Virus record (IMG/VR): IMGVR_UViG_3300024180_000005
Location: 16,219 to 80,218 of that record
Reading direction: 5' to 3' (one strand)
Source: a virus
Length of the DNA stretch: 64,000 nucleotides
In this document: in pieces, positions 10,193-58,676 of the stretch
How the letters are laid out: every line of letters starts with the position of its first letter
Numbering within the stretch: the first letter of the stretch is position 1
The notes under the pieces: generated by a model
Databases searched by the model: none
Told to the model about the DNA's origin: nothing
The model's input: only the letters and a program-made list of their open reading frames with translations
Program-made: the position numbers and the translations under genes

Positions 10193-10282
10193 AGTATAAT
10201 CCGACTTAGGACCGGATATAGATTACGCCCCACGGGTACTATATGAAAACCACTGAATTCGCTCCTCGGTGGTTTTCTTTTT
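10193..10282 (+). ncRNA. putative small structured RNA
   Basis: A roughly 90-nt segment between an AT box (10181-10192) and a terminator hairpin with a T-run (10245-10282). It has no convincing ORF and is much richer in G and C than its surroundings. Predicted by eye: hairpin ATCCG...CGGAT (about 10199-10217), a smaller CCC-CAC-GGG stem near 10228-10236, then the terminator stem GAAAACCAC/GTGGTTTTC. It does not fold as a tRNA. The function is unknown, and it could instead be only the 3' region and terminator of flanking transcripts. Confidence 0.4.
10245..10282 (+). terminator. intrinsic terminator
   Basis: Stem GAAAACCAC/GTGGTTTTC with a 15-nt loop, followed by TTTTT on the plus strand; it abuts the stop codon of the minus-strand endonuclease at 10281. 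Confidence 0.7.
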
Positions 10283-13173: not shown

Positions 13174-14019
13174 ATGAATGTTCTTTCATTATTCGATGGT
13201 ATGTCTTGTGGACATATTGCATTAGACAAACTTGGAATCGAAGTTGATCAATACTTTGCATCTGAAATAGAAGATGCATCTATTAAAGTAACTATGAAAA
13301 ATTATCCAAATACTATACAACTTGGTGATGTTACTAAAGTAGAGGGTAAAGATTTACCAAAAATTGATTTATTGATTGGTGGAAGTCCTTGTCAATCATT
13401 TTCAAATGCAGGAAATGGTTCAGGATTTGATGGTAAGAGTGGATTATTTTATGAATGGGTAAGACTTTTAAAAGAAACTAATCCTAAATACTTTATGTTG
13501 GAAAATGTAAAGATGAAAAAAGAATGGCAAGATGTTATTACTGATATTTTAGGTGTAAAACCAATTCTTATCAATAGTAATATTTTTTCCGCTCAGAATC
13601 GTCAGAGACTTTATTGGACTAATATTCCAATGGATCCTTTACCCGATGATAAAGAGATTTATATCGAAGACATATTAGAGACCAACTTTGATTCAAAGTA
13701 TTGGTTACCTGAAAAGAATGCAGGATTGTTGAGTAAAAAAGTCGATATAACTGGTGCTCCCAATATTTGTTGTATAGATGTCTATAACAAGAGATATAAA
13801 AAAGATAGAAAAAGCCCTACTCTCACACACCCTTGTCATAACTCTCTAAGACTTTTACAAGATGGTAAATTCAGAAAGCTTACACCGATTGAATGTGAAA
13901 GACTTCAGAATGTACCGGATGGTTATACAGAAGGTGTTGCAGATACACATCGATATGCAATGCTTGGAAACGGCTGGACCGTGGATGTCATAGCACATAT
14001 ATTTAAAAACCTCGACTAA
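13174..14019 (+). CDS. dcm: DNA (cytosine-5-)-methyltransferase
   Basis: 281 aa C5-cytosine methyltransferase. Motif I LSLFDGMSCG (AdoMet), motif IV GGSPCQSFSNAG with the catalytic Cys, motif VI MLENV, motif VIII QNRQRLYWTN, motif IX/X ERLQNVPDGYT and MLGNGWTVDVIAHI are all present, so it should be active. The target recognition region is short. No cognate restriction enzyme is adjacent, so a solitary phage methyltransferase protecting phage DNA is the likeliest role. Its stop codon lies inside the terminator hairpin. Confidence 0.93.
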   Translation: MNVLSLFDGMSCGHIALDKLGIEVDQYFASEIEDASIKVTMKNYPNTIQLGDVTKVEGKDLPKIDLLIGGSPCQSFSNAGNGSGFDGKSGLFYEWVRLLKETNPKYFMLENVKMKKEWQDVITDILGVKPILINSNIFSAQNRQRLYWTNIPMDPLPDDKEIYIEDILETNFDSKYWLPEKNAGLLSKKVDITGAPNICCIDVYNKRYKKDRKSPTLTHPCHNSLRLLQDGKFRKLTPIECERLQNVPDGYTEGVADTHRYAMLGNGWTVDVIAHIFKNLD

Positions 14020-24437: not shown

Positions 24438-24594
24438 TCTTATTATAAAGTTTATCAATAGAGTTCTTTCTTTTCCAAGATTTTGAAGAAGCCATATTCT
24501 GAATATTTTTTATTATATCAGCATCTATGTTCTTTGCGAGTTCTTCAGAAAGAATCTTCAGAAGTTCATCTTCTACGTTTATGTTATCTTTCAT
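24421..24594 (-). CDS. small helical protein, 57 aa
   Basis: Reads MKDNINVEDELLKILSEELA, then a helical segment and ends SIDKLYNKIKDVE. It overlaps the stop of the acetyltransferase gene by 4 bp (ATGA) and converges on the tail-tube gene with a 17-bp tail-to-tail overlap. It is the last gene of the minus-strand glycan island transcript; its role there is unknown. Confidence 0.55.
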   Translation of the reverse strand: MKDNINVEDELLKILSEELAKNIDADIIKNIQNMASSKSWKRKNSIDKLYNKIKDVE

Positions 24595-25115
24595 ATTAAA
24601 TTAAATCTACTAAATAAATCATCAAAATTAGATGAACATAAAAGAGGTGATATTTCATTAATTATTTGTTCATCCATATACCACCACTTTAGTTTTAATA
24701 AATTACTTATTATTTCATCACCAAAACGATATTTAATAACTTTTGCCGGATTACCACCAACTATTGAATATGAGGGAACATCTTTAACAACATGTGAATT
24801 ATTTGCTATAACTGAACCATCACCAATTTTAACACCACTCATTATAGTTGTGTTGGTTCCTATCCAAACATCATTACCTATTATAACATCACCATTAGTT
24901 TTAGGATGGCCTTGTCCATTAAATCTATCAAATGTTCCTAACTCAACATGACCAAAAGGATATGTAGTTACCCAATCAGTTCTATGGTTACCACCTAAAA
25001 ATACTTTTATATTACCACCAATAGAACAAAATGATCCAATATGTAATTGAGAACCTTCTCCCCAAGAAAATAAATTAATGTTATTATGTCCATATGTATA
25101 TCTACCAACTTTCAT
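24591..25115 (-). CDS. hexapeptide-repeat O-acetyltransferase (CatB/xenobiotic acetyltransferase-like)
   Basis: 174 aa left-handed beta-helix protein: VGRYTYGHNNINLF, HIGSFCSIGGNIKVFLGGNH, TNGDVIIGNDVWIGTNTTIM, VKIGDGSVIANNSHV, YSIVGGNPAKVIKYRF. These are the hallmarks of the CatB-like xenobiotic/sugar acetyltransferases; the catalytic His is in the GGNHRTDW loop. It would move acetyl from acetyl-CoA to a sugar hydroxyl. Within a run of glycosyltransferases it most likely decorates the glycan they build. Confidence 0.85.
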   Translation of the reverse strand: MKVGRYTYGHNNINLFSWGEGSQLHIGSFCSIGGNIKVFLGGNHRTDWVTTYPFGHVELGTFDRFNGQGHPKTNGDVIIGNDVWIGTNTTIMSGVKIGDGSVIANNSHVVKDVPSYSIVGGNPAKVIKYRFGDEIISNLLKLKWWYMDEQIINEISPLLCSSNFDDLFSRFNLI

Positions 25116-25209
25116 TATTTTATTTTTGAGTACTTTGGATTCAGACTATTTAATAGATTAGTTATTGCAACTATTAATAATTAGTGGTATAATTGTGACT
25201 ACTCAAATT

Positions 25210-25791
25210 TTATTTTCTTTTTAATACAGTTAAACCGTTATTATTTTCATATTTTTCATATATTAACCATTTACTACCATTTTCTGTTTCTAAGAAATCT
25301 AAAACCGCATTCCATAATCCGTTTTTATTTGTAGATTTATTCTTAATATCATCACTCGCATGTTCATATATTTCTTCATCAACTAAACCAAATGATGTTG
25401 TATCATGTAAAATTATATATTTTGATGACTTATTTGAGTGCAAATTCAATTCTTGTATTAATTGGTTATAGGTATGTAAAGTATCAATAAATAATAAATC
25501 TGTTTTTTCTATTTCAATATTCAAAACATCAGATTCTATAAAAGTATAATCAATGCCATATTTATTTGCAATTTCAACCACATCATTTATTTTTTGGTTT
25601 TTTACAATATCATAGCTAATCATTTTTTTTGGATTGGACATCAACAAAGGCCAAGTTGATGAAACCCATCTAACTCCCATCTCAGTTATATGATCACATT
25701 CTTTACCATATTTTAATAAAGTAGGTAAATGTTCATTGATATCAGATGAAATATTACACTGTTCTTTATAAATTAATTCTATTTCTTTCAT
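25210..25791 (-). CDS. class I SAM-dependent methyltransferase-like protein, 193 aa
   Basis: Rossmann pattern: HITEMGVRWVSSTWPLL (motif I, Gly-poor), KKMISYDIV (acidic residue for AdoMet ribose), TFIESDVLN, DLLFIDTLHTYNQLIQEL and YIILHDTTSFG. This matches the Methyltransf_24/cephalosporin-hydroxylase-like group, often found in polysaccharide clusters. Likely modifies a sugar or lipid acceptor. It is separated from its neighbours by about 80-95 bp of AT-rich DNA on each side, unlike the tightly packed glycosyltransferases upstream. Confidence 0.7.
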   Translation of the reverse strand: MKEIELIYKEQCNISSDINEHLPTLLKYGKECDHITEMGVRWVSSTWPLLMSNPKKMISYDIVKNQKINDVVEIANKYGIDYTFIESDVLNIEIEKTDLLFIDTLHTYNQLIQELNLHSNKSSKYIILHDTTSFGLVDEEIYEHASDDIKNKSTNKNGLWNAVLDFLETENGSKWLIYEKYENNNGLTVLKRK

Positions 25792-25869
25792 TTTAATATT
25801 ATATTTTTTATTTATTGGTTGTGTTTACTCAATATTTACTATCTTTATAAGATAGTTTAATGGTAAAGT

Positions 25870-26634
25870 TTACGATAATAATTTAAAGTTTTTATACTTT
25901 TCCATTATTTTATTATATAGATTCTCATCTAAACTTATATTTTTTAAATCTGACCATTTTTCTATTATTAAAATAGGGTATTCTTTATAGTAAGAAATAT
26001 TTATACTATTCGTGACGACTGGAATCGATTTAAAGTATATAGACTCCCAAGTCTTATGACAATCTATACCATTACCATTTGGTGATATAACAAAATAACT
26101 TTTAGATATCTCACGTAAGTAGGACTCAAAATCAACTCTTTCTGAATTTTTAATTGGATATATACTATTTAAACATGTTGTTCTTTCATTCATATTAGTA
26201 TTAATATCTATATTACAATATACGTTATTTACTTTTTTATTATTTTCTATCATTACCTTTTTTATAATATCGGTATTACCGTGTGGCCACCTAATATTCG
26301 CAATTCCAATTGGAATAGAAAATAATTTATAATGTAAAAAGTTAATATTCTGACCATACCATTTTAGTAAATAATCATTATTCATTATTGATAAATAACT
26401 ATCATTTATAGAAAGATCACTATTATGTGTATATAATATAAATTTATTTTTAATATTTGGAAGAATAATTGATTTAAAATCATTTAACATATCTGTTTTA
26501 ACAAATATCTTCATCCCATCAAATTGATTAACTTTATTAATATCAAATTGATAAAACTCATCGTATATAAAATCACATTTCTTTCTATATCCCATCCCAG
26601 TTATAAAAGGAAGTGAATCTTTTGTTAAATCCAT
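25870..26634 (-). CDS. exostosin-like glycosyltransferase, 254 aa
   Basis: The C-terminal half shows the exostosin/GT47-like pattern YFVISPNGNGIDCHKTWESI followed by YFKSIPVVTNS, which in this group binds the nucleotide sugar. The N-terminal half has alternating strands (KIFVKTDML, KFILYTHNSDLSI). It overlaps the upstream gene by 10 bp. GT-B-type transfer of a sugar to a growing glycan is inferred from the family; the donor is unknown. Confidence 0.65.
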   Translation of the reverse strand: MDLTKDSLPFITGMGYRKKCDFIYDEFYQFDINKVNQFDGMKIFVKTDMLNDFKSIILPNIKNKFILYTHNSDLSINDSYLSIMNNDYLLKWYGQNINFLHYKLFSIPIGIANIRWPHGNTDIIKKVMIENNKKVNNVYCNIDINTNMNERTTCLNSIYPIKNSERVDFESYLREISKSYFVISPNGNGIDCHKTWESIYFKSIPVVTNSINISYYKEYPILIIEKWSDLKNISLDENLYNKIMEKYKNFKLLS

Positions 26635-27344
26635 AGGTTATTAATCATTTTATCTATTTCCAATTTATATTGTGAATATGGTCTAAGTGAGTGACAATCT
26701 ATATAATATCCCTTTTTTAAGGTATCAATATCATAAACCCAATTAGATCTATCAATCCTATTCATAGCCATACCATATTTCCAACCTCTCTCAGTTAGAT
26801 ATATTTTATCTCTATAATTAAACTCATTAACACATTTACCGAAATAAAGTTCATCAGTATCCCATCCCTGTTCAAACTTTGACAACCTATCACAATATTC
26901 ACCAAATTCACATTTTAAATCCAAAACATCGTTAAATATCTGACCTTTGCCAACATTATAGCATAACGGATATCTAGTTGTGTTATAAGCATCTGAACTT
27001 AATATAGCCAAACTATCATCATTTAGTTCATTAACTATATTATTAAAATAATAATGACTGAGAGGTAGCATATCTATATCGGATGTTATACAAACATCAT
27101 CTAGGTAATATTTTGTTATATACATTCTAACAATTTGTGACTGAAAGGCTGTTGAATAACCATCAACTGATTTTACTTCATGTATTATATGGTCGTCATT
27201 ATCGGTAACTAAATCCTTATCAGATATTAAAACTAATATAGGTTTTATTTTAATTAATTTAATCCAAAGATCCCTAACAATTGGCCAGAAATCCAAATAC
27301 ATAGGATTACTATCAGAAGCTACTATCGCGTAATCAATTTTCAT
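26625..27344 (-). CDS. GT-A-like glycosyltransferase, 239 aa
   Basis: Starts MKIDYAIVASDSNPMYLDFW and contains DVCITSDIDMLPLSHYYFN, a DxD (DID) motif of GT-A glycosyltransferases, which holds the metal and the nucleotide sugar. Later QGWDTDELYFGKCVNEF and an end with HSLRPYSQYKLEID. It resembles uncharacterised phage and giant-virus glycosyltransferases. It lies 9 bp after the preceding gene and overlaps the next, so it is cotranscribed in the island. Confidence 0.65.
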   Translation of the reverse strand: MKIDYAIVASDSNPMYLDFWPIVRDLWIKLIKIKPILVLISDKDLVTDNDDHIIHEVKSVDGYSTAFQSQIVRMYITKYYLDDVCITSDIDMLPLSHYYFNNIVNELNDDSLAILSSDAYNTTRYPLCYNVGKGQIFNDVLDLKCEFGEYCDRLSKFEQGWDTDELYFGKCVNEFNYRDKIYLTERGWKYGMAMNRIDRSNWVYDIDTLKKGYYIDCHSLRPYSQYKLEIDKMINNLWI

Positions 27345-27353
27345 TTATATGTA

Positions 27354-28016
27354 TTAAGTTTTTAATTTTTTTAATTTATTTTCTAATTCATTCATTATTC
27401 TAACATCACCAGTTCTATCACCAATAGTTTTACATCTAAAATGAAAATAATCAAAAATATTATCCGGGACCGGAGTATTTTTTATATCCAACCTTTTAGA
27501 AAAAGTTGGATAAATTCCAATATCTCTTAATAAACAAGCAAGTGCTACATCATCTATAAACTGATGATTCCATTTATTTCTATTTTCTACTACTTTTTCA
27601 ACTAAATCTTTGGATATAAAATATCCACAACCACTAGCGAAATTTATATCACCATGATTACCTATAATACCGTTATAAAACTCATTAAAAGGTTTATCAT
27701 CTAAATAGTCAACTAACTTCTCAATATTAACATAACTGCTACTATTGGTCCTAAAGATATAATCAAAATTATTACCTTTTAATAAAATCTCAAAAGCTCT
27801 AATAGTTTTATACCCTATATTATTATAACCTTCCGGATAGTTTGTTATTATTTTATCTTCATAAATGTACTCATCTTGCCCACCATGGTAAAAAAATACT
27901 TTTACATTATCTAGATTATGATTTGCCCAAGTTTTTTTTATACAATTCTCCAACATAACATAAGGTTCTTGATAATGACTCAATACCAATATTATTACAT
28001 TTTTTCTATTTGACAT
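27354..28016 (-). CDS. glycosyltransferase-like protein, 220 aa
   Basis: MSNRKNVIILVLSHYQEPYV at the start, FDYIFRTNSSSYVNIEKLVDYL as a modified DxD region, GCGYFISKDLVEKVV and FIDDVALACLLRDIGIYPTF later: the layout of galactosyltransferase-like GT-A enzymes (GT31-like), where EDV/DDV is the catalytic acidic motif. It is packed 4 bp from the next gene. The acceptor is unknown. Confidence 0.65.
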   Translation of the reverse strand: MSNRKNVIILVLSHYQEPYVMLENCIKKTWANHNLDNVKVFFYHGGQDEYIYEDKIITNYPEGYNNIGYKTIRAFEILLKGNNFDYIFRTNSSSYVNIEKLVDYLDDKPFNEFYNGIIGNHGDINFASGCGYFISKDLVEKVVENRNKWNHQFIDDVALACLLRDIGIYPTFSKRLDIKNTPVPDNIFDYFHFRCKTIGDRTGDVRIMNELENKLKKLKT

Positions 28017-28020
28017 TATC

Positions 28021-28695
28021 CTAAAAATTTTTTATTATTTTCCAAAAATCAGGATGTCTCTCATTATTTGAATCAAAAACATCACCAACAAATTCATAAT
28101 CTACTCTTTTAGATGGGAATAATCTAGTCTCTCCACCAAAATTCAAACCAAATTCTGAATGCTCCATCGCCGTATTGGTGATAAGTGAATAAACACATTT
28201 TCCTAAAAAGTCTTGATCAATTCCCTTTCTCTGAAACTGATTCCAACCTTCAATTAATTTAATTATTTCAATTTTTCTCATTAATCCATTTCGTGAACCC
28301 CACATACCACCCAAAATAGGAACCGTATGATAAGGGTGATCTCTCATTATGTGAAAATCTTTATCTGATTCTAGCCACTCATTTACGGCATTTACTTCTC
28401 TCTCAGATATTCTAGAGTCACAATCTCTGGATAAAAATATATCAACATCTAAATCCTCAGATGCCCAGAATCGCCAAAACATACCGTGGAATGAGTCCTT
28501 TGAATCCACTAATATAACCTCAACATTATCACCTTTAATTGTTTCTATTAATTCTGTTTTTGAATTTTTATCAATATAAAATCTACAAATCCAACCGGGA
28601 TAATAAATTTTAGACAATTCTATATTTTTTAGTGCACCAACCCAATACATTGGGTCATCACCCCAAAGACTATAAGCTATTATATTTTTAGACAT
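28021..28695 (-). CDS. GT-A-like glycosyltransferase, 224 aa
   Basis: NIIAYSLWGDDPMYWVGAL at the N-terminus, FYIDKNSK, then FHGMFWRFWASEDLDVDIFL and SRDCDSRI, a DxD-type motif (DCD), and HIMRDHPYHTVPILGGMWG. This group of small glycosyltransferase-like proteins is common in large phages. It overlaps the upstream gene by 8 bp. Probably transfers a hexose, but the donor and acceptor cannot be read from sequence. Confidence 0.65.
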   Translation of the reverse strand: MSKNIIAYSLWGDDPMYWVGALKNIELSKIYYPGWICRFYIDKNSKTELIETIKGDNVEVILVDSKDSFHGMFWRFWASEDLDVDIFLSRDCDSRISEREVNAVNEWLESDKDFHIMRDHPYHTVPILGGMWGSRNGLMRKIEIIKLIEGWNQFQRKGIDQDFLGKCVYSLITNTAMEHSEFGLNFGGETRLFPSKRVDYEFVGDVFDSNNERHPDFWKIIKNF

Positions 28696-29428
28696 TTAAT
28701 AAATTTATTTTTTCTATAACACGATCAAACCTAGATTTATTAGGTATTTTATGAATAGGAGAAACTATGCTATCAACAAATCTTTCTCTTTGATGCCACA
28801 TATGTATTATAGTATTATTTAGTAGATTTGTTGTCTGAAATTCCTCACCAAAAACAGGTTCTAAATATTTAAATTTTATTCCATTGTCTTTCAAAACCCA
28901 CATAAAATCATAATAAGGCTCTGTTTCTGGCTTCCAAATCATACCCAAAGGTTTACCAGAAGATCCAAATTCCATATTATACTCATAGTGTGAATGATTT
29001 CTTTTCTCATATGGATAATCCTCTATCCATTCCTTTTTAAATTGTGGAATTTTTTTCCTATTATGCCAAGTGTCTATACATTTTCTATTCATTATCATAA
29101 AAAATGAATTAAGCGCCATGTGATTACCACTCCTATACTCAAAATGACCATCTGGAGGTCCGGCAATATCAATATTATTATCTTCCATTTCTTTAATAAG
29201 ATTTATTATCTCATCATTAGATGTTATAAAACAATCTTCGTCTATATGTACATACCAATCTGATTCAAAATCTTTTGAAAAGTTCAACCAATCATACCAA
29301 ACCATAAACCATCCCTTTCTACCATCGAATTTAATATGATTAGAATCTGGGAAATTTTTTCTTATACATTCATCTTGTGTTTTTTGTATATCTGAAAATG
29401 TACTTGTTGTAAAAAATGTTATTTTCAT
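28688..29428 (-). CDS. GT-A-like glycosyltransferase, 246 aa
   Basis: MKITFFTTSTFSDIQKTQDE at the start; KDFESDWYVHIDEDCFITS carries the acidic DED metal-binding motif; AGPPDGHFEYRSGNHMALNS and NTIIHMWHQRERFVDS follow, with an H-x-W-x-Q segment like the C-terminal His of GT-A enzymes. It overlaps both neighbours by a few bases (4 and 8 bp). A member of the phage glycan island. Confidence 0.65.
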   Translation of the reverse strand: MKITFFTTSTFSDIQKTQDECIRKNFPDSNHIKFDGRKGWFMVWYDWLNFSKDFESDWYVHIDEDCFITSNDEIINLIKEMEDNNIDIAGPPDGHFEYRSGNHMALNSFFMIMNRKCIDTWHNRKKIPQFKKEWIEDYPYEKRNHSHYEYNMEFGSSGKPLGMIWKPETEPYYDFMWVLKDNGIKFKYLEPVFGEEFQTTNLLNNTIIHMWHQRERFVDSIVSPIHKIPNKSRFDRVIEKINLLNV

Positions 29429-30156
29429 ATTTTAATATTTATTTTTGTTGTTTCGATGAATTTTTTTATCTGTGTACAAAATAATCCATCCTTCCCTCTT
29501 AAATAATCATCTGGATTAGAAGTTATAGAATCATCTATTCTCCAAACACCACCTAATTTAATCATATCAGAATAAAAGAAACTTGCAAATTCGGTCCAAC
29601 TGATATAATCATAGTTTGTCTTATGTGTACGGTGGTTTATAATCTCATTTTCTATATGATATATTTTAATCCCTAAACGATTAGCAACCATAGGTAACCA
29701 AAAATCCCACCATGGCATTCCAATTACATAGTTTTTATTGTAAAAAAGTTCAATATTTTTTTTATCAAAAATAAACAAATCATATCCATCGGGAAATGGG
29801 TAAGAAGGGACATCACCCAATTCCCATCTCGTTGCTATAACTAAGGAATCATCAAAGAATTTATTTAGTTTTATTTTTTTATTAAGTATAATATCAGAGT
29901 TAACTATAGCACATTTATCAGTATTAGTCAATTTTATAGCATCTAATATAGCATCTAATCTTACCAAAGTTTTTTTATCAACCTGAAATGTTTTTCTGGT
30001 CTTAACTATGTTAACATCAGGATATAAATCTTTTATAATTTCTATCTCTTCTTCCGTATTTACGGTATAAACATCATATTCCTTACACCAAGAATCGATT
30101 GCCTCTTTTTGTGCATCAAAATTACCATATGGGTTTATTGTTGTAAATACTTTCAT
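29425..30156 (-). CDS. glycosyltransferase-like protein, 243 aa
   Basis: MKVFTTINPYGNFDAQKEAI, KCAIVNSDIILNKKIKL (the position of a DxD-type loop), then IATRWELGDVPSYPFPDGYD and GMPWWDFWLPMVANRLG. The PWWDFW segment is typical of a family of nucleotide-diphospho-sugar transferases in which it lines the acceptor pocket. The start overlaps the stop of the upstream gene by 1 bp. Confidence 0.6.
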   Translation of the reverse strand: MKVFTTINPYGNFDAQKEAIDSWCKEYDVYTVNTEEEIEIIKDLYPDVNIVKTRKTFQVDKKTLVRLDAILDAIKLTNTDKCAIVNSDIILNKKIKLNKFFDDSLVIATRWELGDVPSYPFPDGYDLFIFDKKNIELFYNKNYVIGMPWWDFWLPMVANRLGIKIYHIENEIINHRTHKTNYDYISWTEFASFFYSDMIKLGGVWRIDDSITSNPDDYLRGKDGLFCTQIKKFIETTKINIKI

Positions 30157-30860
30157 TAATTAACTTCCAATCTTTTTTCAACAGACATAGATTGTCTATT
30201 CTTCCAAGTAATATCATCTTCACCCCATTTAGCATTATAAGCTTGGTCTGCTTGGTCTGCTTCTCTTTTACCGGCAGCGTAATGTAAATGTTCAAACATC
30301 GTCTCATCGTTCAACCTATCGTCGTAAAGTAGGTTTAAATCTTTTAAATTATTATATAACTCACAGTCGCTAAACATGTGGTTGTATGCGGGATGGTATA
30401 TAACTCCATTCATTTTTCTTAAACAACCATAAGTCATTATAGGAATAGTAATGGCAGGATGTAACATATTAGATGAGTCTGGTAATTGATAGCCATCTCT
30501 AACCATCAATCCAACATCTCCTTTCCCTTCTAACTTATTAGTTAAGTACGTGTCCCATCCTTGTGGTGCCATAAAGTCATCGCTTGCAAAGATAACAATA
30601 TCACTATCTTCACATTTACCCATCTTAATACCTAAGTTAGAAGATAATTGATAGGATGGATAACAAACACCAATCTTATTTGTATTTAATGTAATTAAAA
30701 AGTTATTTTTTAAATAATCTTTTAATTCTGTAGCCTGTTGTTCCCAATTAACCGCAACGTAGGTTTGTATATTTGATGGATTATCTGCTCGTTTAATCCA
30801 TTCAGTGTGCATTTCTTTAAATTGTTGAGGGCGAATTGTTGCCCATAAAATGTGTATCAT
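30156..30860 (-). CDS. family 2-like glycosyltransferase, 234 aa
   Basis: First gene of the island. MIHILWATIRPQQFKEMHTE, YPSYQLSSNLGIKMGKCEDS, then DIVIFASDDFMAPQGWDTYL: the GT2 pattern, with a DD metal site and the following aromatic/Gly acceptor region. It ends with MFSDCELYNNL and KREADQ. Likely starts sugar transfer in the cluster. The Clp terminator lies just upstream, so it needs its own promoter in the 30.86-30.92 kb gap, which I could not identify. Confidence 0.7.
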   Translation of the reverse strand: MIHILWATIRPQQFKEMHTEWIKRADNPSNIQTYVAVNWEQQATELKDYLKNNFLITLNTNKIGVCYPSYQLSSNLGIKMGKCEDSDIVIFASDDFMAPQGWDTYLTNKLEGKGDVGLMVRDGYQLPDSSNMLHPAITIPIMTYGCLRKMNGVIYHPAYNHMFSDCELYNNLKDLNLLYDDRLNDETMFEHLHYAAGKREADQADQAYNAKWGEDDITWKNRQSMSVEKRLEVN

Positions 30861-30966: not shown

Positions 30967-33084
30967 TTATTCATCTTTTTTCTTTCTTGGCTTCCTAGTG
31001 GCCTTTTCTATAATAACAAATGATTCATCATCTTCTTTGTTATAATCTAGTAAGAATTTTGTCCCTTCTTTTGGATTATTCTCAATGATATAATCTGTTA
31101 CAATATCATCAACCCATCTTTGAATTGCCCTCTTTAAAGGTCTAGCACCATATTTAGGATCATACCCTACTTCAACTAAGTGATCTTTCAAAGTTTCAGT
31201 TATTTCAGTTGGGTAACCAATATCTGCAGCCCTTTTAACAGTTTTAACTAACTCTAAGTCTACAATTTTAAGAATCTCTTCTTTACCTAAATCTCTGAAG
31301 TAGATAATTTCATCAATTCTGTTGATAAACTCTGGTGCGAATTTGTTTTTCAACTCTTTCTCTAGGATACCTTTGATTTCTTCATCTCTTACATTTTCTT
31401 TATTCTTTGTAGAGAATCCAACTCCTGTACCGAAATCTTTAACTAATCGAGTACCTACATTTGAAGTCATTAAGATAATACAGTTTTTAAAACTTACTTT
31501 TCTTCCGTGTGAATCGGTAACTTGACCATCATCTAACATCTGTAAGAATAGGTTAAATACTTCTGGATGTGCTTTCTCAATCTCATCAAAAAGAATAACT
31601 GAATAAGGCTTTCTTCTAATTCTATCAAGAACATTGGTATCTTCATAGCCAACATATCCTGGTGCAGAACCTTGTATTTTAGATAAAGAGATTTTATCCA
31701 TATATTCTGACATATCTAATCGAATCAAAGAATCTTCAGAATCAAATAAATATTTTGCAATTTGTTTAGCTAACTCGGTTTTACCAACTCCCGAATTACC
31801 AATAAGCATTCCAGAAAAAACCGGCTTGTTAGCATCTTTCATACCAACTCTACCTCTTTGAATTGCTCTTACAACTTTCTTAACGGCATCATCTTGACCA
31901 ATAACCTTTCCACAAATCTCAGAACCCATCTTAGCAAGTCTTGTATTTTCTTTCTCACCAACTTTTTGTAAAGGAATACCAGTCATCATAGAGACTACTT
32001 GTGCAACATTATCCTCGGTAACTATTTGTTTATTTCTAGAAGATTCTTCTTCCCAGTCTTTTCTTGCCTTTTCTAAACTCTCATTTAATTGACGTTCAAC
32101 ATCTCTTAATTTAGCAGCATCTTCATATTTCTGTGATCGAATAACTTCATTTTTCTTCTCTTTTATATCGGCTATTTTATTCTCAATATCTGTAATTTCT
32201 TTAGGAACTACAATATTTGAAATATGTACTCTTGATCCGGCCTCATCTAGTGCATCAATTGCCTTATCTGGTAAAAATCTATCGGTAATATATCGATCTG
32301 TTAAATCAACACAAGCCTTAATTGCTTCTGTTGTATATTCAACATTATGGTGAGACTCATATTTATCTTTAATATTATTTAAGATTTCCATACTTTCTTC
32401 AGAAGAAGCAGCCTCAATTGTAACTTTTTGGAATCTTCTTTCTAAAGCACCATCTTTCTCAATATGTTTTCTATACTCATCAAGTGTAGTTGCACCAATG
32501 ATTTGTATCTCACCTCTTGCCAATGCTGGTTTAAACATATTAGATGCATCCATTGATCCAGAAGCACCACCGGCACCAATCATTGTATGAATTTCGTCGA
32601 TAAATAAAATAACATCCGTATTTTTCTCCATCTCTGTCATAAGAGCTTTAATTCTTTCTTCAAATTGTCCTCTATATTTAGTACCAGCAACCATTGACGC
32701 CAAGTCTAGCATAACAACTCTTTTATTGAAGAGAATTCTACTTACTTTTCTTTGAATAATTCTTAAAGCTAATCCTTCTGCTATAGAAGATTTACCTACA
32801 CCTGGTTCACCAATTAAAATTGGATTATTCTTTTTTCTTCTTGCTAAAATTTGAGAAACTCTTTCGATTTCTTTCTCTCTTCCAACAATTGCATCAAGTT
32901 TACCATCTTCTGCCATTTTAGTCAAATCTCGACTATATGTATCTAGAACCGGAGTTTTAGACTTTGCGTCAGTTTTTTTACCTGAACTATAAGAACTATC
33001 ATCATCATCATCATCAAATGTCGCCTTCATATTTGGCAATCCTTTAAGGTATTCATCCCCTTTTGATTTTTTATTATTTCCCAT
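30967..33084 (-). CDS. clpA: ClpA/ClpC-type AAA+ unfoldase, 705 aa
   Basis: Two AAA+ modules: Walker A1 GEPGVGKS (92-99) with Walker B VILFIDEIHT, and Walker A2 GNSGVGKT (about 430) with VILFDEIEKA. Between them lies the short ClpC-like middle segment including EDAAKLRDVERQLNESLEKA and VSMMTGIPLQKV. The usual Clp N-terminal adaptor domain is missing; in its place are about 45 residues rich in Asp/Ser/Lys. No ClpP is present in the window. It could use host ClpP, or unfold proteins on its own during assembly or takeover. Confidence 0.9.
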   Translation of the reverse strand: MGNNKKSKGDEYLKGLPNMKATFDDDDDDSSYSSGKKTDAKSKTPVLDTYSRDLTKMAEDGKLDAIVGREKEIERVSQILARRKKNNPILIGEPGVGKSSIAEGLALRIIQRKVSRILFNKRVVMLDLASMVAGTKYRGQFEERIKALMTEMEKNTDVILFIDEIHTMIGAGGASGSMDASNMFKPALARGEIQIIGATTLDEYRKHIEKDGALERRFQKVTIEAASSEESMEILNNIKDKYESHHNVEYTTEAIKACVDLTDRYITDRFLPDKAIDALDEAGSRVHISNIVVPKEITDIENKIADIKEKKNEVIRSQKYEDAAKLRDVERQLNESLEKARKDWEEESSRNKQIVTEDNVAQVVSMMTGIPLQKVGEKENTRLAKMGSEICGKVIGQDDAVKKVVRAIQRGRVGMKDANKPVFSGMLIGNSGVGKTELAKQIAKYLFDSEDSLIRLDMSEYMDKISLSKIQGSAPGYVGYEDTNVLDRIRRKPYSVILFDEIEKAHPEVFNLFLQMLDDGQVTDSHGRKVSFKNCIILMTSNVGTRLVKDFGTGVGFSTKNKENVRDEEIKGILEKELKNKFAPEFINRIDEIIYFRDLGKEEILKIVDLELVKTVKRAADIGYPTEITETLKDHLVEVGYDPKYGARPLKRAIQRWVDDIVTDYIIENNPKEGTKFLLDYNKEDDESFVIIEKATRKPRKKKDE

Positions 33085-34083: not shown

Positions 34084-35017
34084 ATGGATATAATAGTTAG
34101 ATTAAAAAACCATAATACTAAACTATCAATTTCTAATTTAGAATTATATAAAAATGATAGTTCTAAACTAAATTTTAGATGTGAGTGTGGTTATGAATGG
34201 TCTGCAGTATACAGAGATATATTGAGATCAAAAAGAAATAATGGTTGTGTAAAATGTCAAAAAAGAAGTAAATCTGAAAGAGTATATACTTTATCAAATG
34301 ATGTTTATTTAAAAAGAGTTAATGAATATTGGGGGGGATAAGATTGAAGTTTTGGAAGAGTATAAAAAGGGAGAAGATAAAATTAAAATTTTATGTAAAG
34401 TTTGTGATAATGTATGGAATCCAACTGCTAGATCATTATTGAGAGGAAACGGATGTCCAAAATGTGGACATGAGAAAACAAAATTATCTCGTATTAAAAG
34501 TAATGAAAAATATTTAGAAGAGTTGAAATATGTTCATGATGATAGAATAACTTTAATCGATAAATATATTAATAGTAATACAAAAGTTAATTTCAAGTGT
34601 TGTTTGTGTGATAATACATGGTTAGCCAATCCTAACATGATATTAAGAGGAAGAGGTTGTCCAAAGTGTAAATTTTCCAAAGGTGAGTTATTAATTTCAA
34701 AATTATTAAAAGATATAGATATAGAATTTAAGGAACAATTTATTATAAAAGGATTAAAAACTAACAAAGGTGGTACACCTAGATTTGATTTCGCAATTTT
34801 TGAAAACAATGTTTTAACAAAAATTATTGAATATGATGGAATTTTACATTTTGAACCTGTTAATAAATTTGGAGGATTAAAAAGACTAAAAGAACAAAAA
34901 GAAGTTGATGATTTTAAAAATAAATATTGTATCAAAAATAATATTAAAATGATAAGGATACCATATTATGACATTTCAAAAATAGACATTGAATATCTAA
35001 AAAATAAAATTATTTGA
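34084..35017 (+). pseudogene. zinc-ribbon homing endonuclease split by a frameshift at a G7 tract
   Basis: Two frames (34084-34341 and 34322-35017) together encode one protein of about 310 aa. Three zinc-ribbon repeats (CECGYEWSA...CVKC; CKVCDNVWNPT...CPKCG; CCLCDNTWLAN...CPKC) lead to a Vsr-like nuclease (FDFAIFEN, IIEYDGILHFEP, NIKMIRIPYYD). The break is at seven G (34331-34337); with six G the frame reads NEYWGDKIEVLEEYK and continues. So it is a one-base insertion in the only long G tract noticed in this AT-rich window: a real inactivating mutation, phase variation or a sequencing error. The end overlaps the CYTH gene by 8 bp. Confidence 0.75.
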
Positions 35018-49941: not shown

Positions 49942-50133
49942 TTAATATATTCTTTTAAATAATTCGTGAATATCTAATGTACCTTCTCTATATTTAAATT
50001 CTTTTAGTCGTCTATCTGGAAATTTATCATTTCTCCATTTAGAAGAGACTGATTTATTAACCTCGAAATATTCTTCGAGTTTTTTGGAATATTTTCGTTG
50101 TATATAGAACTCTATGAAAAATATATCTATCAT
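49942..50133 (-). CDS. small HTH-like protein, 63 aa (possible controller)
   Basis: YSKKLEEYFEVNKSVSSKWR then FPDRRLKEFKYREGTLDIHELFKRIY: a helix-turn-helix-like layout with a recognition helix around NKSVSSKW, and an ending typical of small phage or C-protein-like regulators. It overlaps the methyltransferase gene by 4 bp (ATGA) and is the last gene of the nuclease-helicase/methyltransferase operon. A controller role is inferred from context. The 49791-49941 gap downstream holds no ORF or RNA that I can support. Confidence 0.5.
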   Translation of the reverse strand: MIDIFFIEFYIQRKYSKKLEEYFEVNKSVSSKWRNDKFPDRRLKEFKYREGTLDIHELFKRIY

Positions 50134-51770
50134 TTTTGTAAAATTAATTTTTGTTCATCTTCTGTTAAATTAAAATATTCAAATAGAAGATCATCTGTCC
50201 ATTGTCGGTCTAATTCGACCAATGGTATCCACTTGAAAGTATCAGGTTTCATATTTTGTGTATTTTTTCTAAGTGATAAGAAAAAGTTACAAAATTTTGT
50301 ATTCATATATGATATTAGTGATTTAGATTCATTTTCTGAATTTGTTAACAATGTCATATAAGTATTTGAGCAAACTTCATTCGGGTATCCAATTATTTTA
50401 TTACCAAAATTACCAAGATTATTAGATGATCCTGCTGCATATGGTGTAAAGACTTTAAATTTGTCTATTAGATTTCTGGATGAACCAGATAGTTCATCAG
50501 GGTTTATATATTTTTTAAGTCCTTTATTTTTAGAAACATAACATAATATGTTGTTATCGGATTTAATATTATCTAATTTACTATCATTAAAATTCATCCA
50601 AAATGATTTGGATTTTGCTATCGATTTTAATGAATTATTCATATTTTCTAATATTTTATCCAATAAATTATAATATTTTAGATCAACAAAAATATCGTAT
50701 TTATTAAGTTTTGTTATTTTACCATCTATATCGACTAATCCATTATGTTTTTTATCTATCATAAAATATGAAACACCACCTTTGATCTCAACACTATTTC
50801 CAAATATTTTTGTAGCATCATCAAAGTGTCTTATTAATTTTATATCATTTCTAGAAAACATCATATTTCTAAAATTATCTAATCCAAAACCACCTGCCAA
50901 CCATCTACTTGGTGTTATGAATAAAATTTTATCAGAAAATTCTATAGATTTTTCAATAAATTCATTATAAATTGGTCTGGCTCTTTTACTACCTTCTATG
51001 GTTTCTTGATATGGTGGATTACTTAAACATAAACTAAATCTATCTACTCCCCATACTTCTCTCATGTGTATATCAAATCCATTTTCTAAGTATGATCCAC
51101 AATATACATTTAAGTCATATTCGTCATATAAATCTGCGGTACATAACCAATTAAACATTTTTGAATTTTGTAATTCACAAGCATATATCATATTTTCAAT
51201 TATGAATTTGTATCTTTCATCTTCATCGATAAAATGTGTTCTTAGACCATGCATAAATTTATAAACAACACACCATAAAAATATTCCGGAACCATTTGAT
51301 GTTTCTAAAATAGTTTTAATATTACCATTTTCATCATATGGAGAGCACCAGAAATCCTCAGAAATTTGTAAAATCATTTCCTTAACCATAAAGAAAGGAG
51401 TTAACACTTCACCAAAATCTTTTTTTAAGATATCTTTTTTTGTATATTCATCTCTGAAAATAGTTAGTATTTCCTGAACCATTTCCATTTTGCTTGGTTT
51501 TTTTTGTAAAATTAGCGCAATCTTTGAAGAAAAATCTTTCTCTTTGTCGAGAGTTCTCATTATTCTAAGTCTTTTTTCAAATGGATTTAAATCAGAGTTT
51601 AATAGATTTAATAATCTTACTTTTTCTTCTTCTGATAAATTATTATCATCCTCTATAGTTTGAGAAGTTATTATTTCTTCAAATATATTTTTGTTATGAT
51701 TTATATTGTATTCGGTAAGTGCTGTCGAGAAGGTCATTCCAAAACTTATATTACTTTTACTTAGTTGCAT
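50130..51770 (-). CDS. N6-adenine DNA methyltransferase (type I/Eco57I-like), 546 aa
   Basis: Gamma-type N6-adenine methyltransferase: FGEVLTPFFMVKEMIL (segment before the AdoMet site), motif I TSNGSGIFLWCVVYKF (about 157-172), motif IV CLSNPPYQ (NPPY at 251-254). An N-terminal helical part of about 115 residues precedes the core; the C-terminal 200 residues likely form a target recognition domain (YPNEVCSNTYMTLL is like type IIG/Eco57I enzymes). It lies 63 bp after the nuclease-helicase gene and overlaps the HTH gene. Would modify adenines as half of a restriction-modification pair. Confidence 0.8.
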   Translation of the reverse strand: MQLSKSNISFGMTFSTALTEYNINHNKNIFEEIITSQTIEDDNNLSEEEKVRLLNLLNSDLNPFEKRLRIMRTLDKEKDFSSKIALILQKKPSKMEMVQEILTIFRDEYTKKDILKKDFGEVLTPFFMVKEMILQISEDFWCSPYDENGNIKTILETSNGSGIFLWCVVYKFMHGLRTHFIDEDERYKFIIENMIYACELQNSKMFNWLCTADLYDEYDLNVYCGSYLENGFDIHMREVWGVDRFSLCLSNPPYQETIEGSKRARPIYNEFIEKSIEFSDKILFITPSRWLAGGFGLDNFRNMMFSRNDIKLIRHFDDATKIFGNSVEIKGGVSYFMIDKKHNGLVDIDGKITKLNKYDIFVDLKYYNLLDKILENMNNSLKSIAKSKSFWMNFNDSKLDNIKSDNNILCYVSKNKGLKKYINPDELSGSSRNLIDKFKVFTPYAAGSSNNLGNFGNKIIGYPNEVCSNTYMTLLTNSENESKSLISYMNTKFCNFFLSLRKNTQNMKPDTFKWIPLVELDRQWTDDLLFEYFNLTEDEQKLILQK

Positions 51771-51833
51771 ATATTGATTTTATTTTTATGTTAAGTTACA
51801 AACTTTTTTATATTATATATAAAAAAGTTTACT

Positions 51834-54041
51834 TTACTTTTTAAAAAGTAAAAGATAATCATCATCGTCTAATTGTTTGATTATATTTACTTTTTCTTCT
51901 TCTTCCTTATTCTTTATCTGTTCTTCTAAATTTATTTTAATCTGAATCTCTTCTTCCTGTATTTCTACTTTAACCCGTTCAATCATTTTTTTAAATTTAG
52001 CGGAGTCAAAATTGACATTTATATCAATCGTTTTTTCGTAATTTGGTTTTTCATATTTTTTACCACCTTTTCCTTCATCATCGATTACCGAAATATCCCA
52101 TTGTTCTTCCGGAATTCCTTGATCAAGTAAAAATTTAATAATCATCTTAACTCTATTTGAGAAGGTATCTTCATTCACTGCTAAGTAAATGACATTATAA
52201 TATTTTTCCCATCCATCGGGACTATCTAAAGAAATTAGGCCTTTTTCGAATTTTATGGTATCTGAATATAATGCTCTATCAGGTCTTCCTATAGATTGTT
52301 GTAATGAAATTATATTCATCTCTCTACCTATTAAACCACCATGTAAATTTGGTAGATTTATACCTTCTTTTGCAACAGAGTGTTGATGTAATATATTACC
52401 ACCGGACAATTTAATATATTCTATTATTTTTTCTCTATCATCAGTACTGGTCTCTGATGCCATGAAGTGATTTTTAACATCTGGTAAATGTTTAATCATT
52501 TCTTTACTATTTGCTATGTATCTACATCCTTCAACATGATCACCAAAAGTAATCAAATTTGGTTTTTCGTAATACTTACAAAGATCTTTATATGCAACAA
52601 TGGAAGAAACTGCTTCAATTTGTGCCTTATCTATATCTAACTTTATTCTTGTCGCGTCTCTTTTTGTTTCATTTGAATTTGATATAGATTTAATCTTTAA
52701 CAGTTTAAAGATTAATTTTGGTGCTACGAACCCTCTTTCTCTTAAATCATTTCTATTGACTTTTGCCAATAATGAACCAAATAAATCTTCATTAAATGAG
52801 CTTAATATTTCACCAAACTTATTTGATGCACTATAAAATATAGTTCCATCACATCTATCTTCATTATTTTTTAAATAATCTGCAATTTCGAGCTGGGTTT
52901 TTCTATCAGATGATGTAGATATAATATTGTGATATTCGTCTATTAGTTCTATTCCTATTTTTATATTTTTTTCTTTTAACTTTTCAACTATATTAGAATA
53001 TTTAAGACCTTGTGATTTCATAGTTGAAAATATGATAACTTTTCTACCCTGACTTCTTTCATTAATAATAAAATCTATTGCTTTTTGTGTATCTAATGTT
53101 TGTAAAACATTTGCAACTAAATCATTGTATCGTGGATTACTACCTGATCTTATAATTAAACATGATACGTTTGACTTAGTGATTTCACCATTCAATTCTT
53201 TGTGACCAAACATTTTCCATTGATAAAATTCTTTAAATGTTTGACTAATAAGAGATATAGTAGGTAGTATCATTACACAAATATCTTTATTGTACTTTTT
53301 AAATGCTCTGTCAACATTATAAAATTGACATAATGTTTTTCCCGCACCTGTTGTTGCATCAACTCTTCCTTTTGTTAAAGTACCATCTAAAACTCTTTCT
53401 GTTCCTAAATATCCCTTTTCTTTGTGACCATCCATTATCCATAATTGAACCTCTCTTGGTTTATATGGATCTTCAAAGAAATCAACTACTGAGTCTTTTA
53501 TACATTGTCTAAAATCATCCCAAAATTTTGGATCTCTTAGTATATAATCTTCTTGTGTACTTCTACCAATAACTCTTCTCGCATTTCTAGCACCTTTGAA
53601 TTTATAGTCAAATAAGTCTTCATTATCATCAAAGTTAATGAAAAGTATATTATTGTCTTTATCAATACCTAGATTCCTAGCCATCTCACCATTTGATCCT
53701 AAATCACCAATTTTAAATTGGTGATTTGGATTACTTCTCCATTTAGACTGTATTTGACCAGGTAAATCATTAAAATCGGTATATGTGAAATCATATCCAA
53801 CATTAAATGCATCATCACTGGTATCTGTTATTTGTCTTATACCTAATAGTGGATTTTCATTTCTTAGACAAAAGAATTGTGTAAATATTTCAAATGCCAT
53901 ACCGACTCTATCATTATATTCTGATGGATTTGACTCACCATATTTTTTAATAGAGTCATTCATATCTGAATATGAATTAACATTATCAAATACATTATCT
54001 TTTTCAATTTTATAAACCGATAAGTGAGTTATTTTTTTCAT
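51834..54041 (-). CDS. restriction-like nuclease-helicase fusion (Mrr-type PD-(D/E)XK + SF2), 735 aa
   Basis: The N-terminus carries a Mrr-like PD-(D/E)XK pattern: Glu51 in AFEIFTQF, Asp84 in NVGYDFTYTDF, then GQIQSKW with Gln98 and Lys100. An SF2 helicase follows: Walker A DATTGAGKT (about 228-236), Walker B-like ELIDEYHN (367-370), and motif VI QQSIGRPDRALY near residue 590. The layout resembles the nuclease-translocase half of type ISP enzymes, without the methyltransferase, which is a separate downstream gene. A TATATTTG box lies upstream. The C-terminus is Glu/Lys-rich. Alternatively a UvsW-like recombination helicase, but the nuclease motif argues against that. Confidence 0.75.
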   Translation of the reverse strand: MKKITHLSVYKIEKDNVFDNVNSYSDMNDSIKKYGESNPSEYNDRVGMAFEIFTQFFCLRNENPLLGIRQITDTSDDAFNVGYDFTYTDFNDLPGQIQSKWRSNPNHQFKIGDLGSNGEMARNLGIDKDNNILFINFDDNEDLFDYKFKGARNARRVIGRSTQEDYILRDPKFWDDFRQCIKDSVVDFFEDPYKPREVQLWIMDGHKEKGYLGTERVLDGTLTKGRVDATTGAGKTLCQFYNVDRAFKKYNKDICVMILPTISLISQTFKEFYQWKMFGHKELNGEITKSNVSCLIIRSGSNPRYNDLVANVLQTLDTQKAIDFIINERSQGRKVIIFSTMKSQGLKYSNIVEKLKEKNIKIGIELIDEYHNIISTSSDRKTQLEIADYLKNNEDRCDGTIFYSASNKFGEILSSFNEDLFGSLLAKVNRNDLRERGFVAPKLIFKLLKIKSISNSNETKRDATRIKLDIDKAQIEAVSSIVAYKDLCKYYEKPNLITFGDHVEGCRYIANSKEMIKHLPDVKNHFMASETSTDDREKIIEYIKLSGGNILHQHSVAKEGINLPNLHGGLIGREMNIISLQQSIGRPDRALYSDTIKFEKGLISLDSPDGWEKYYNVIYLAVNEDTFSNRVKMIIKFLLDQGIPEEQWDISVIDDEGKGGKKYEKPNYEKTIDINVNFDSAKFKKMIERVKVEIQEEEIQIKINLEEQIKNKEEEEKVNIIKQLDDDDYLLLFKK

Positions 54042-54057
54042 AATTTTTTAATTTTAA

Positions 54058-54065
54058 CAAATATA
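54058..54065 (-). promoter_or_regulatory. host-type promoter -7 box TATATTTG
   Basis: About 17 bp upstream of the nuclease-helicase start; drives the three-gene operon. It lies just inside the 3' end region of the next upstream gene. Confidence 0.55.
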
Positions 54066-54069
54066 GTAA

Positions 54070-57440: not shown

Positions 57441-58676
57441 ATGAAAAGGATGTCTAATGAATATTTTATAATTAAATCAAAGGAAATATGGGGTGATAAG
57501 TATGACTACTCACTCGTTGAGTATAAAAACATGAAGACTAAAATAAAAATAATCTATAATGATTGGATTTTCTTACAAAAGGCAGAGGATCACTTATTAG
57601 GTAAGATGTGTGAATTGAGATGGAACACTGATCGTTTTATTTTTGAATCCAAAAAAATACATGGTGATAATTATGACTATAGTAAGAGCGTTTTTAAAAA
57701 CATGAATACAAAAGTAATTTTGTTAAAAAATGGGGTTGAGTATTTACAAAGACCAGATAAGCATTTACAGGGTAAAAAGCCAGAAAGAGTTAGAAGACTT
57801 AGAAGTAATAATGATTTTATAGATGAGGCTAGATCAATTTGGGGATATAAATATGATTATTCATTAGTTGATTATAAAGGATCACATAAAGAAGTTTTGA
57901 TTAAACATGATGATATAATTTATAGACAAAAACCTGTTCAACATTTGCTTGGTTATAATTGTGAAAGAGATACTATAAAAAATCAAGAAGACTTTTTGAG
58001 AAAATGTTATGAAAAACATGGTACTAAATATGATTATTCGTTGGTTGAATATACGGGAAGTCAGAATAAAGTCAAAATAATATTTGAGGGGAAAGTATAT
58101 GAACAAAAAGCAGGTGCACACATTCATTCATCCGGATTGGTTGAAAGAGTAATATTAAAAAAGACAACAAAACAATTTATAAAAGAGGCAAATGAAATAC
58201 ATAATTTTAGATATGATTATTCAAAAGTAAAATATTTAAACAATCAGACAAAAGTAATAATATTTTGTAAAATACATGGTGAATTTGAACAGGTATCATC
58301 ATCACATTTGAGTGGAGCAGGTTGTCCACATTGTTCTGAGTCCAAAGGTGAAAAAAAAATCTCTAAGTTTTTAGATCTTAATGAGATTGAATATGATAGA
58401 CAAAAGAAATTTGATGGTTGTATTGGTATAAGATATAAACTACCTTTTGATTTCTATCTACCTAAATATAGAACTGCTATAGAGTTTGATGGTAAGCAAC
58501 ATTATGAGCCTATTGAATATTTCGGTGGCTTAGAAGCATACAATCGATTGAAAGTAAATGACAAGATAAAGTCTGACTATTGTGAGGACAACTATATTGA
58601 TTTGATAAGAATCAGATATGACCAGATTGATAGAGTGTTTGAAATATTGAAAGAGAGTTTAAAGAATAAGATTTAA
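57441..58676 (+). CDS. homing endonuclease with DUF723-type repeats, 411 aa
   Basis: Five tandem repeats of about 65 residues, each with an (I/K)xGDKYDYSLVxY-x-N core and a HLLGKxCE-like end (for example IWGDKYDYSLVEYKN, IHGDNYDYSKSVFKN, IWGYKYDYSLVDYKG, KHGTKYDYSLVEYTG, IHNFRYDYSKVKYLN), and one last zinc knuckle GAGCPHCSESKGEKKI. A Vsr-like nuclease closes the protein: LPFDFYLPKYRTAIEFDGKQ, HYEPIEYFGG, NYIDLIRIRYDQ. It sits next to the RecA gene and has the spaced AT box. Confidence 0.8.
   Translation: MKRMSNEYFIIKSKEIWGDKYDYSLVEYKNMKTKIKIIYNDWIFLQKAEDHLLGKMCELRWNTDRFIFESKKIHGDNYDYSKSVFKNMNTKVILLKNGVEYLQRPDKHLQGKKPERVRRLRSNNDFIDEARSIWGYKYDYSLVDYKGSHKEVLIKHDDIIYRQKPVQHLLGYNCERDTIKNQEDFLRKCYEKHGTKYDYSLVEYTGSQNKVKIIFEGKVYEQKAGAHIHSSGLVERVILKKTTKQFIKEANEIHNFRYDYSKVKYLNNQTKVIIFCKIHGEFEQVSSSHLSGAGCPHCSESKGEKKISKFLDLNEIEYDRQKKFDGCIGIRYKLPFDFYLPKYRTAIEFDGKQHYEPIEYFGGLEAYNRLKVNDKIKSDYCEDNYIDLIRIRYDQIDRVFEILKESLKNKI

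What the first reader, a model, noticed from the sequence alone, without database searches (positions are those of the whole stretch)
49942..54041. Restriction-modification-like operon in a lytic phage
A host-type promoter, then a nuclease-helicase (Mrr-like Asp84...Gln-x-Lys plus SF2 motor), an N6-adenine methyltransferase of the Eco57I/type I kind, and a small HTH protein coupled by ATGA. Together they hold the parts of a type ISP enzyme divided into two polypeptides plus a possible controller. A phage might use it to attack rival phages or host DNA while methylating its own.
Basis: partly seen in the sequence, partly recalled or inferred. Interest (0 to 1): 0.78.

Follow-up and report, generated by a model that had tools for sequence, protein, structure and literature searches.

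The report
Split restriction-modification module in a phage
This virus of bacteria carries its own two-gene DNA-cutting and DNA-marking machine, of a kind normally used by bacteria against viruses; relatives of it in other large viruses have exchanged their DNA-recognition parts, so viruses appear to keep and retarget it as a weapon against unmarked DNA.

Summary
The closest solved relatives of the motor family are the Type ISP enzymes LlaBIII and LlaGI. In every viral contig recovered with the nuclease or helicase as bait, all three activities lie together, fused or as separate genes. Bacteroidota genomes hold the same kind of methyltransferase beside or fused to a GIY-YIG-nuclease/SF2 helicase. 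Recognition domains differ (14-25% identity) between systems whose nuclease and motor are 53-75% identical, and shared recognition domains occur across unrelated motors: specificity exchange, the mark of working restriction-modification. Related phages lack both genes at the same locus and have no other such helicase, so a replication role is unlikely. The small HTH-like gene is not part of the module: it stays at the empty site and is free-standing elsewhere. Verdict: a split, Type ISP-like, phage-borne restriction-modification module; new variant of a known kind. Its target (rival phage or host DNA) is unknown.

The parts
51834..54041 (-). 735-aa nuclease-motor gene (restriction subunit)
   Evidence: ORF; Pfam ResIII/DEAD/Helicase_C; 70% and 63-64% identical fused homologues in L002 and L080
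53472..54041 (-). N-terminal PD-(D/E)XK (Mrr-like, QxK) nuclease domain, residues 1-190; E51 53889-53891, D84 53790-53792, Q98 53748-53750, K100 53742-53744
   Evidence: E51, D84, Q98, K100 invariant in 12 sequences; AlphaFold2 pLDDT 82; weak PDB fold hits dominated by PD-(D/E)XK nucleases
52122..53459 (-). SF2 motor, about residues 195-640 (TTGAGKT, DEYH, SAS, QSIGR)
   Evidence: motifs; family profile best matches LlaBIII 8e-22 and LlaGI 2e-21 in the PDB, ahead of UvsW 2e-17
51834..52121 (-). C-terminal charged helical tail of the motor protein (possible coupler or docking part; function inferred only)
   Evidence: sequence; poorly conserved in alignment A10
50130..51770 (-). 546-aa gamma-class N6-adenine DNA methyltransferase with own recognition domain
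   Evidence: Pfam Eco57I; AlphaFold2 pLDDT 78; fold hits CamA 6e-13, BrxX/PglX, HsdM, BsaXI, DrdV
51003..51440 (-). methyltransferase core, residues 111-256 (motif X FGEVLTP, motif I ETSNGSG, motif IV NPPY)
   Evidence: motif positions, alignments
50133..51002 (-). C-terminal half with target recognition domain, residues 257-546
   Evidence: 14-25% identity between systems whose nuclease and motor are 53-75% identical
54058..54065 (-). TATATTTG, Bacteroidota -7-like box upstream of the module
50134..54069 (.). extent of the accessory insert, from synteny with phages that lack it
   Evidence: UvsX - HAD - 173-aa gene - [module] - 63-aa gene - exonuclease in the window; the same neighbours without the module in L096
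49942..50133 (-). 63-aa HTH-like gene overlapping the methyltransferase stop; neighbour of the module, probably not a member
   Evidence: kept at the empty site (78% identical, L096:12708-12899), free-standing in L091-L095, decayed in L002

Best explanation
A complete ATP-dependent restriction-modification module carried as accessory cargo by a large Bacteroidota phage. The 546-aa protein binds an (unknown, probably asymmetric) site through its C-terminal recognition domain and methylates an adenine in it; this marks the phage's own DNA. When the site is unmethylated, the 735-aa partner docks on the methyltransferase, its SF2 motor moves along the DNA, and its N-terminal PD-(D/E)XK nuclease cuts, probably when two such complexes meet, as in Type ISP enzymes. 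So it works like a Type ISP enzyme divided into two chains. Shown: the parts, intact catalytic motifs, kinship of the motor to LlaBIII/LlaGI, regular company of the three parts, recognition-domain exchange, absence of the whole module in syntenic relatives. Inferred: complex formation, translocation, cleavage, methylation, and the target, which is any DNA in the infected cell without the mark (co-infecting phages or the host chromosome).
For: Nuclease residues G47, F50, E51, G82, D84, Q98, K100 are invariant in 12 divergent sequences. The motor profile hits LlaBIII 8.4e-22 and LlaGI 1.8e-21 before UvsW 2.3e-17. The methyltransferase fold matches CamA, BrxX/PglX, HsdM, BsaXI and DrdV. With the nuclease as bait 5 of 5 loci, and with the helicase as bait 6 of 6, hold all three parts within about 8 kb, although most of these genomes have a single methyltransferase match of this family. 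In L003 nuclease, helicase and methyltransferase are three overlapping genes; in L081 nuclease and helicase are adjacent overlapping genes 43% and 28% identical to the window's. 28 of 29 methyltransferase relatives in Bacteroidota genomes lie by or are fused to a GIY-YIG/SF2-helicase protein. Recognition halves are 14-25% identical in pairs whose nuclease and motor are 53-75% identical, and 56-65% identical among L080, L083 and L086, whose motors are only 20-27% identical. Syntenic phages lack both genes.
Against: Nothing was measured: no methylation, no cleavage, no recognition site. The fold comparison of the nuclease gave no PDB hit below E = 1e-3. In some phages (L004, L083, L085, L086, L088) the methyltransferase is separated from nuclease and helicase by other genes. 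The restriction gene is first in the operon, an unusual order for a self-protecting system. The contig is a fragment.
Confidence: 0.85

Rival explanations
1. The same enzyme, but aimed at the host: after infection it cuts the unmethylated host chromosome, to feed nucleotides to phage replication and shut the host down, with exclusion of rivals as a side effect.
For: The host chromosome is the largest body of unmarked DNA in the infected cell. Large virulent phages commonly destroy host DNA (general knowledge). The fragment encodes a ribonucleotide reductase small subunit.
Against: Recognition domains are exchanged repeatedly, which fits a moving target such as other phages better than a chromosome. 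Related phages do without the module.
Confidence: 0.35
2. Marking and exclusion without cleavage, BREX-like: the motor stalls replication of unmarked DNA and the nuclease domain is vestigial or serves another task.
For: The methyltransferase model also resembles BrxX/PglX.
Against: Catalytic residues of the nuclease are invariant in 12 divergent sequences, and bacterial counterparts have another nuclease fold, GIY-YIG, in the same place. No other BREX gene was recognised by PADLOC.
Confidence: 0.08
3. A UvsW-like recombination or replication helicase beside an orphan methyltransferase, neighbours by chance.
For: The motor matches phrog_16 'DNA helicase' and UvsW 2.3e-17.
Against: LlaBIII and LlaGI are closer. 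Fused nuclease. Helicase and methyltransferase occur together in about a dozen phages and are absent together in syntenic relatives of 127 and 186 kb, which have no phrog_16 match at all.
Confidence: 0.03
4. The 63-aa HTH-like protein is the module's controller (C protein), delaying the restriction gene.
For: ATGA overlap with the methyltransferase; HTH-like pattern, my reading.
Against: No Pfam or PDB match. Present at the empty site and alone in L091-L095. Broken in L002, whose two large genes are intact.
Confidence: 0.1

Closest known systems
Type ISP restriction-modification enzymes (LlaGI, LlaBIII)
   Same: Order Mrr-like PD-QXK nuclease, SF2 motor, gamma-methyltransferase, recognition domain (PMC3874165, PMC4666363); the motor family's closest solved relatives.
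   Different: Two chains (three in L003, L004 and others) instead of one; nuclease not detectably similar to the PDB chains by sequence; coupler not identified; phage-borne.
GIY-YIG / SF2-helicase + split gamma-methyltransferase operons of Bacteroidota (L018, L052-L079; gut phages L014, L017)
   Same: Homologous methyltransferase-recognition protein; nuclease-helicase partner next to it or fused to it.
   Different: Nuclease is GIY-YIG (T5orf172/MUG113) instead of PD-(D/E)XK; motif I of the methyltransferase is carried on an additional about 225-aa subunit.
Type I restriction-modification (HsdR/HsdM/HsdS)
   Same: N-terminal nuclease then SF2 motor in the restriction subunit; gamma-class methyltransferase.
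   Different: No separate S subunit with two recognition domains; recognition domain is part of the methyltransferase chain.
CglI (R.CglI nuclease + H.CglI helicase, with a methyltransferase)
   Same: Separate nuclease and DEAD-family ATPase chains that act together (PMC5737866), like the split phage forms.
   Different: Defined 5-bp site 5'-GCCGC-3' with cleavage nearby; no homology to it was tested here.
CamA and BREX BrxX/PglX methyltransferases
   Same: Best fold matches of the 546-aa protein.
   Different: CamA is an orphan methyltransferase (own knowledge); BrxX belongs to a multi-gene system not seen here.

Membership tests
Type ISP | N-terminal Mrr-like nuclease of the PD-QXK kind | tested here: met
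   E51, D84, Q98-x-K100 invariant in 12 sequences; fold support moderate only
Type ISP | SF2 translocase directly after the nuclease in the same chain | tested here: met
   closest solved relatives LlaBIII and LlaGI
Type ISP | gamma-class methyltransferase followed by a C-terminal recognition domain | tested here: met
   order X-I-IV-recognition half; Eco57I, CamA-like fold
Type ISP | all domains in a single polypeptide | tested here: not met
   stop and 63-bp gap between the two genes; likewise two genes in L002 and L080, three in L003
Type ISP | coupler domain between motor and methyltransferase | tested here: inconclusive
   a helical tail of the motor protein and about 110 helical residues at the start of the methyltransferase could be its halves; not shown
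Type ISP | ATP-dependent translocation and cleavage between head-to-head sites | not testable with these tools
   needs biochemistry
Type I R-M | separate specificity subunit (HsdS) | tested here: not met
   no such gene beside the module
Type III R-M | beta-class Mod (DPPY) and nuclease at the C-terminus of Res | tested here: not met
   NPPY gamma-class order; nuclease is N-terminal
BREX | BrxX accompanied by BrxA/B/C/Z | tested here: not met
   PADLOC scan of the module and its neighbours
UvsW-like replication helicase | kept by relatives independently of the methyltransferase | tested here: not met
   no phrog_16 helicase in the syntenic 127- and 186-kb relatives that lack the methyltransferase
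C-protein-controlled R-M | controller gene conserved with the module | tested here: not met

The most novel reading that the evidence does not exclude
The module is a driver of inter-phage genetic conflict: it lies in a variable slot where relatives carry an HNH-like endonuclease gene and other small genes, it cuts the unmarked genomes of co-infecting relatives (marker exclusion, as homing endonucleases do), and it spreads and retargets by swapping recognition domains between phages. That would make restriction-modification a weapon of virulent phages rather than a host defence.
Probability: 0.3. Interest if true: 0.8.

Novelty: new variant of a known kind. Interest (0 to 1): 0.62.

Why it matters
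Restriction-modification is usually treated as a defence of cells against phages. Here large phages carry, shuffle and retarget a whole ATP-dependent system. The natural set gives fused, two-gene and three-gene versions of a Type ISP-like machine with either of two nuclease folds, which helps to show how such enzymes are assembled and evolve, and it makes restriction by a phage directly testable.

Tried and rejected
DNA-level search of phage records found nothing. Sequence search of the nuclease profile against the PDB found no relative, and a single-sequence search with the 735-aa protein found none either; only the 12-member motor profile resolved LlaBIII and LlaGI. A search for the nuclease in 395 Bacteroidota genomes gave nothing, but without a positive control, so I do not claim that the PD-(D/E)XK form is confined to viruses. 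UvsW-like replication role: rejected. HTH as controller: rejected. The 'helix-turn-helix regulator' of Tenacibaculum phage PTm1 near a related methyltransferase is not convincingly a relative of the 63-aa protein. L005 has the methyltransferase without a recognised partner in the part held. Papers: no description of this split phage-borne form was found in the library, which lacks most subscription journals.
Full report
What is there. The window is the last 64 kb of an 80-kb IMG/VR fragment of a large phage with UvsX-like recombinase, single-strand binding protein and ribonucleotide reductase genes. On the minus strand lie, in this order, a 735-aa gene (51834-54041), a 546-aa gene (50130-51770) and a 63-aa gene (49942-50133) that overlaps the stop of the second by ATGA.

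The 735-aa protein. The motor is plain by sequence (Pfam ResIII 1.4e-10, Helicase_C 8e-7), with TTGAGKT, DEYH, SAS and QSIGR in place. A profile of 12 viral relatives of the motor finds, among all solved structures, LlaBIII (8.4e-22) and LlaGI (1.8e-21) first, then T4 UvsW (2.3e-17). So the closest solved relatives of the motor are the Type ISP enzymes. The first 190 residues carry E51, D84 and Q98-x-K100; G47, F50, E51, G67, G82, D84, Q98 and K100 are invariant in 12 sequences as little as 19% identical to the window's. The AlphaFold2 model is good (pLDDT 82, pTM 0.82). Its Foldseek hits are weak (best E 5e-3) but mostly PD-(D/E)XK proteins: EcoO109I, LmuA, SfsA, AF1548, Hjc, EndoMS, R.BspD6I, McrC. 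One split relative (L003) matches Pfam Mrr_cat_2 at 0.0017, below the curated cut-off. I take the nuclease as very likely, resting more on residue conservation than on the fold search.

The 546-aa protein. Pfam Eco57I 6.5e-13. Motif order X (FGEVLTP), I (ETSNGSG), IV (NPPY), then a C-terminal half, is that of gamma-class N6-adenine methyltransferases. The model (pLDDT 78) matches the adenine methyltransferase CamA (6e-13), BREX BrxX/PglX, HsdM, BsaXI and DrdV.

The parts belong together. L002 has the same pair (70% and 80% identical) and L080 has it as well. In L003 the nuclease, the helicase and the methyltransferase are three overlapping genes. In L004, L085, L086, L088 and L089 nuclease and helicase are separate genes close together, with the methyltransferase within about 4 kb. 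In L083 the three are spread over about 11 kb. In the GC-rich contig L081 and in L082 nuclease and helicase are followed by another methyltransferase whose motif X/I piece is encoded separately downstream. All 5 loci found through the nuclease and all 6 found through the helicase have all three parts within about 8 kb, and most of these genomes have a single methyltransferase match of this family. In a sample of Bacteroidota, 31 of 395 genomes have a relative of the methyltransferase. Of 29 such loci read, 22 have it beside, and 6 fused with, a protein similar to GIY-YIG/SF2-helicase proteins; the remaining one ends at the contig edge. Pfam confirms GIY-YIG-type domains and ResIII in several of these proteins, in two gut phage loci (L014, L017) and in part of the fused ones.

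Specificity exchange. Between systems whose nuclease and motor are 53-75% identical (window/L080, L004/L085, L004/L086, L004/L088, L004/L089, L085/L086, L086/L088, L088/L089) the methyltransferase core is 40-62% identical but the C-terminal half only 14-25%. Conversely L080, L083 and L086 share C-terminal halves at 56-65% while their motors are 20-27% identical, and L085/L088 share theirs at 57%. Recognition parts are traded independently of the cutting parts. This is how restriction-modification systems evolve and is hard to explain for a repair helicase beside an orphan methyltransferase.

Empty site. In the 186-kb contig behind L093/L096 the order UvsX (72% identical), HAD protein (44%), 173-aa gene homologue (32%), 63-aa gene (78%), exonuclease (64%) matches the window. 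Between the 173-aa and 63-aa genes there are only two small unrelated genes, and between the 63-aa gene and the exonuclease a gene with a weak, sub-threshold HNH match. L092 (127 kb) shows the same. Neither contig has a phrog_16 helicase or a methyltransferase of this family. The module is accessory. L003 and L080 also have it on the same stretch as the exonuclease homologue, which suggests a preferred place.

The small gene. The 63-aa protein is 60-81% identical to single genes in other phages without the module, has no Pfam or PDB match, and is broken in L002, where related pieces lie on both sides of the intact pair. It is a neighbour, perhaps a marker of a cargo site, not a demonstrated controller.

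Comparison with the known. Type ISP enzymes are defined as single chains of, in order, Mrr-like PD-QXK nuclease, translocase, gamma-methyltransferase and recognition domain (PMC3874165; PMC4666363). The window's pair has these parts in this order but in two chains, so I do not file it as Type ISP; it most likely works like one. It is not Type I (no S subunit), Type III (wrong methyltransferase class, nuclease at the wrong end) or BREX (no companion genes). CglI is a precedent for separate nuclease and helicase chains acting together (PMC5737866). I found no description of this split, phage-borne form in the library, but most subscription journals are missing, and phages with restriction-modification are known in general (for example Type III of P1; own knowledge). 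Hence 'new variant of a known kind'.

What remains inferred: activity, site, complex formation and target. The host chromosome and co-infecting phages are both unmarked DNA in the infected cell; recognition-domain turnover and the accessory status lean towards phage rivals, but this is a judgement and not a test.

Noticed in passing
L090:6850-8742, L090:14000-14494, L090:15870-16400 continuing into window 12-707; window 30967-33084: The phage fragment encodes Hsp70/DnaK (Pfam 1e-245), GrpE and a complete DnaJ, plus a ClpA/ClpB-type AAA ATPase: a whole chaperone set.
   Followed up: partly
L002:3763-4392 (+) and L002:4420-5295 (-): Convergent pair beside the module: a 209-aa protein without any family match but with a nuclease-like GADI...SIKSSK pattern, and an N6/N4 methyltransferase (DPPY); possibly a second, Type II system in the same phage.
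   Followed up: partly
L018 and L052-L079: About 8% of sampled Bacteroidota genomes carry a GIY-YIG/SF2-helicase + gamma-methyltransferase system, often with motif I on a separate about 225-aa subunit while the large subunit has a degenerate motif I.
   Followed up: partly
L081:10110-12855, L082:8758-10840: Methyltransferases whose motif X/I piece is a separate small gene downstream of the NPPY/NPPF piece, a permuted split.
   Followed up: no
L014:12429-15287: Gut phage NatCom_35866: next to the GIY-YIG-helicase system, a 952-aa protein with an EVE domain and a McrB-like AAA domain, a possible modification-dependent restriction partner.
   Followed up: no
L016:5157-8924 (LR756508, 484-kb phage): 1255-aa protein with an Eco57I domain at its C-terminus and a long N-terminal part without a Pfam match; it may be a fused version of the system.
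   Followed up: partly
window 13174-14019: A C5-cytosine DNA methyltransferase (Pfam 1.5e-43) without an obvious nuclease partner, so the phage may carry two kinds of DNA methylation.
   Followed up: no
window 24591-30860: A run of genes that look like glycosyltransferases and sugar-modifying enzymes on the minus strand (by reading the translations; not searched).
   Followed up: no
window 10281-12035, 18369-20330, 34322-35017, 57441-58676: Several endonuclease-like genes (DUF7487, zinc-finger and HNH/homing families) scattered through the phage.
   Followed up: partly
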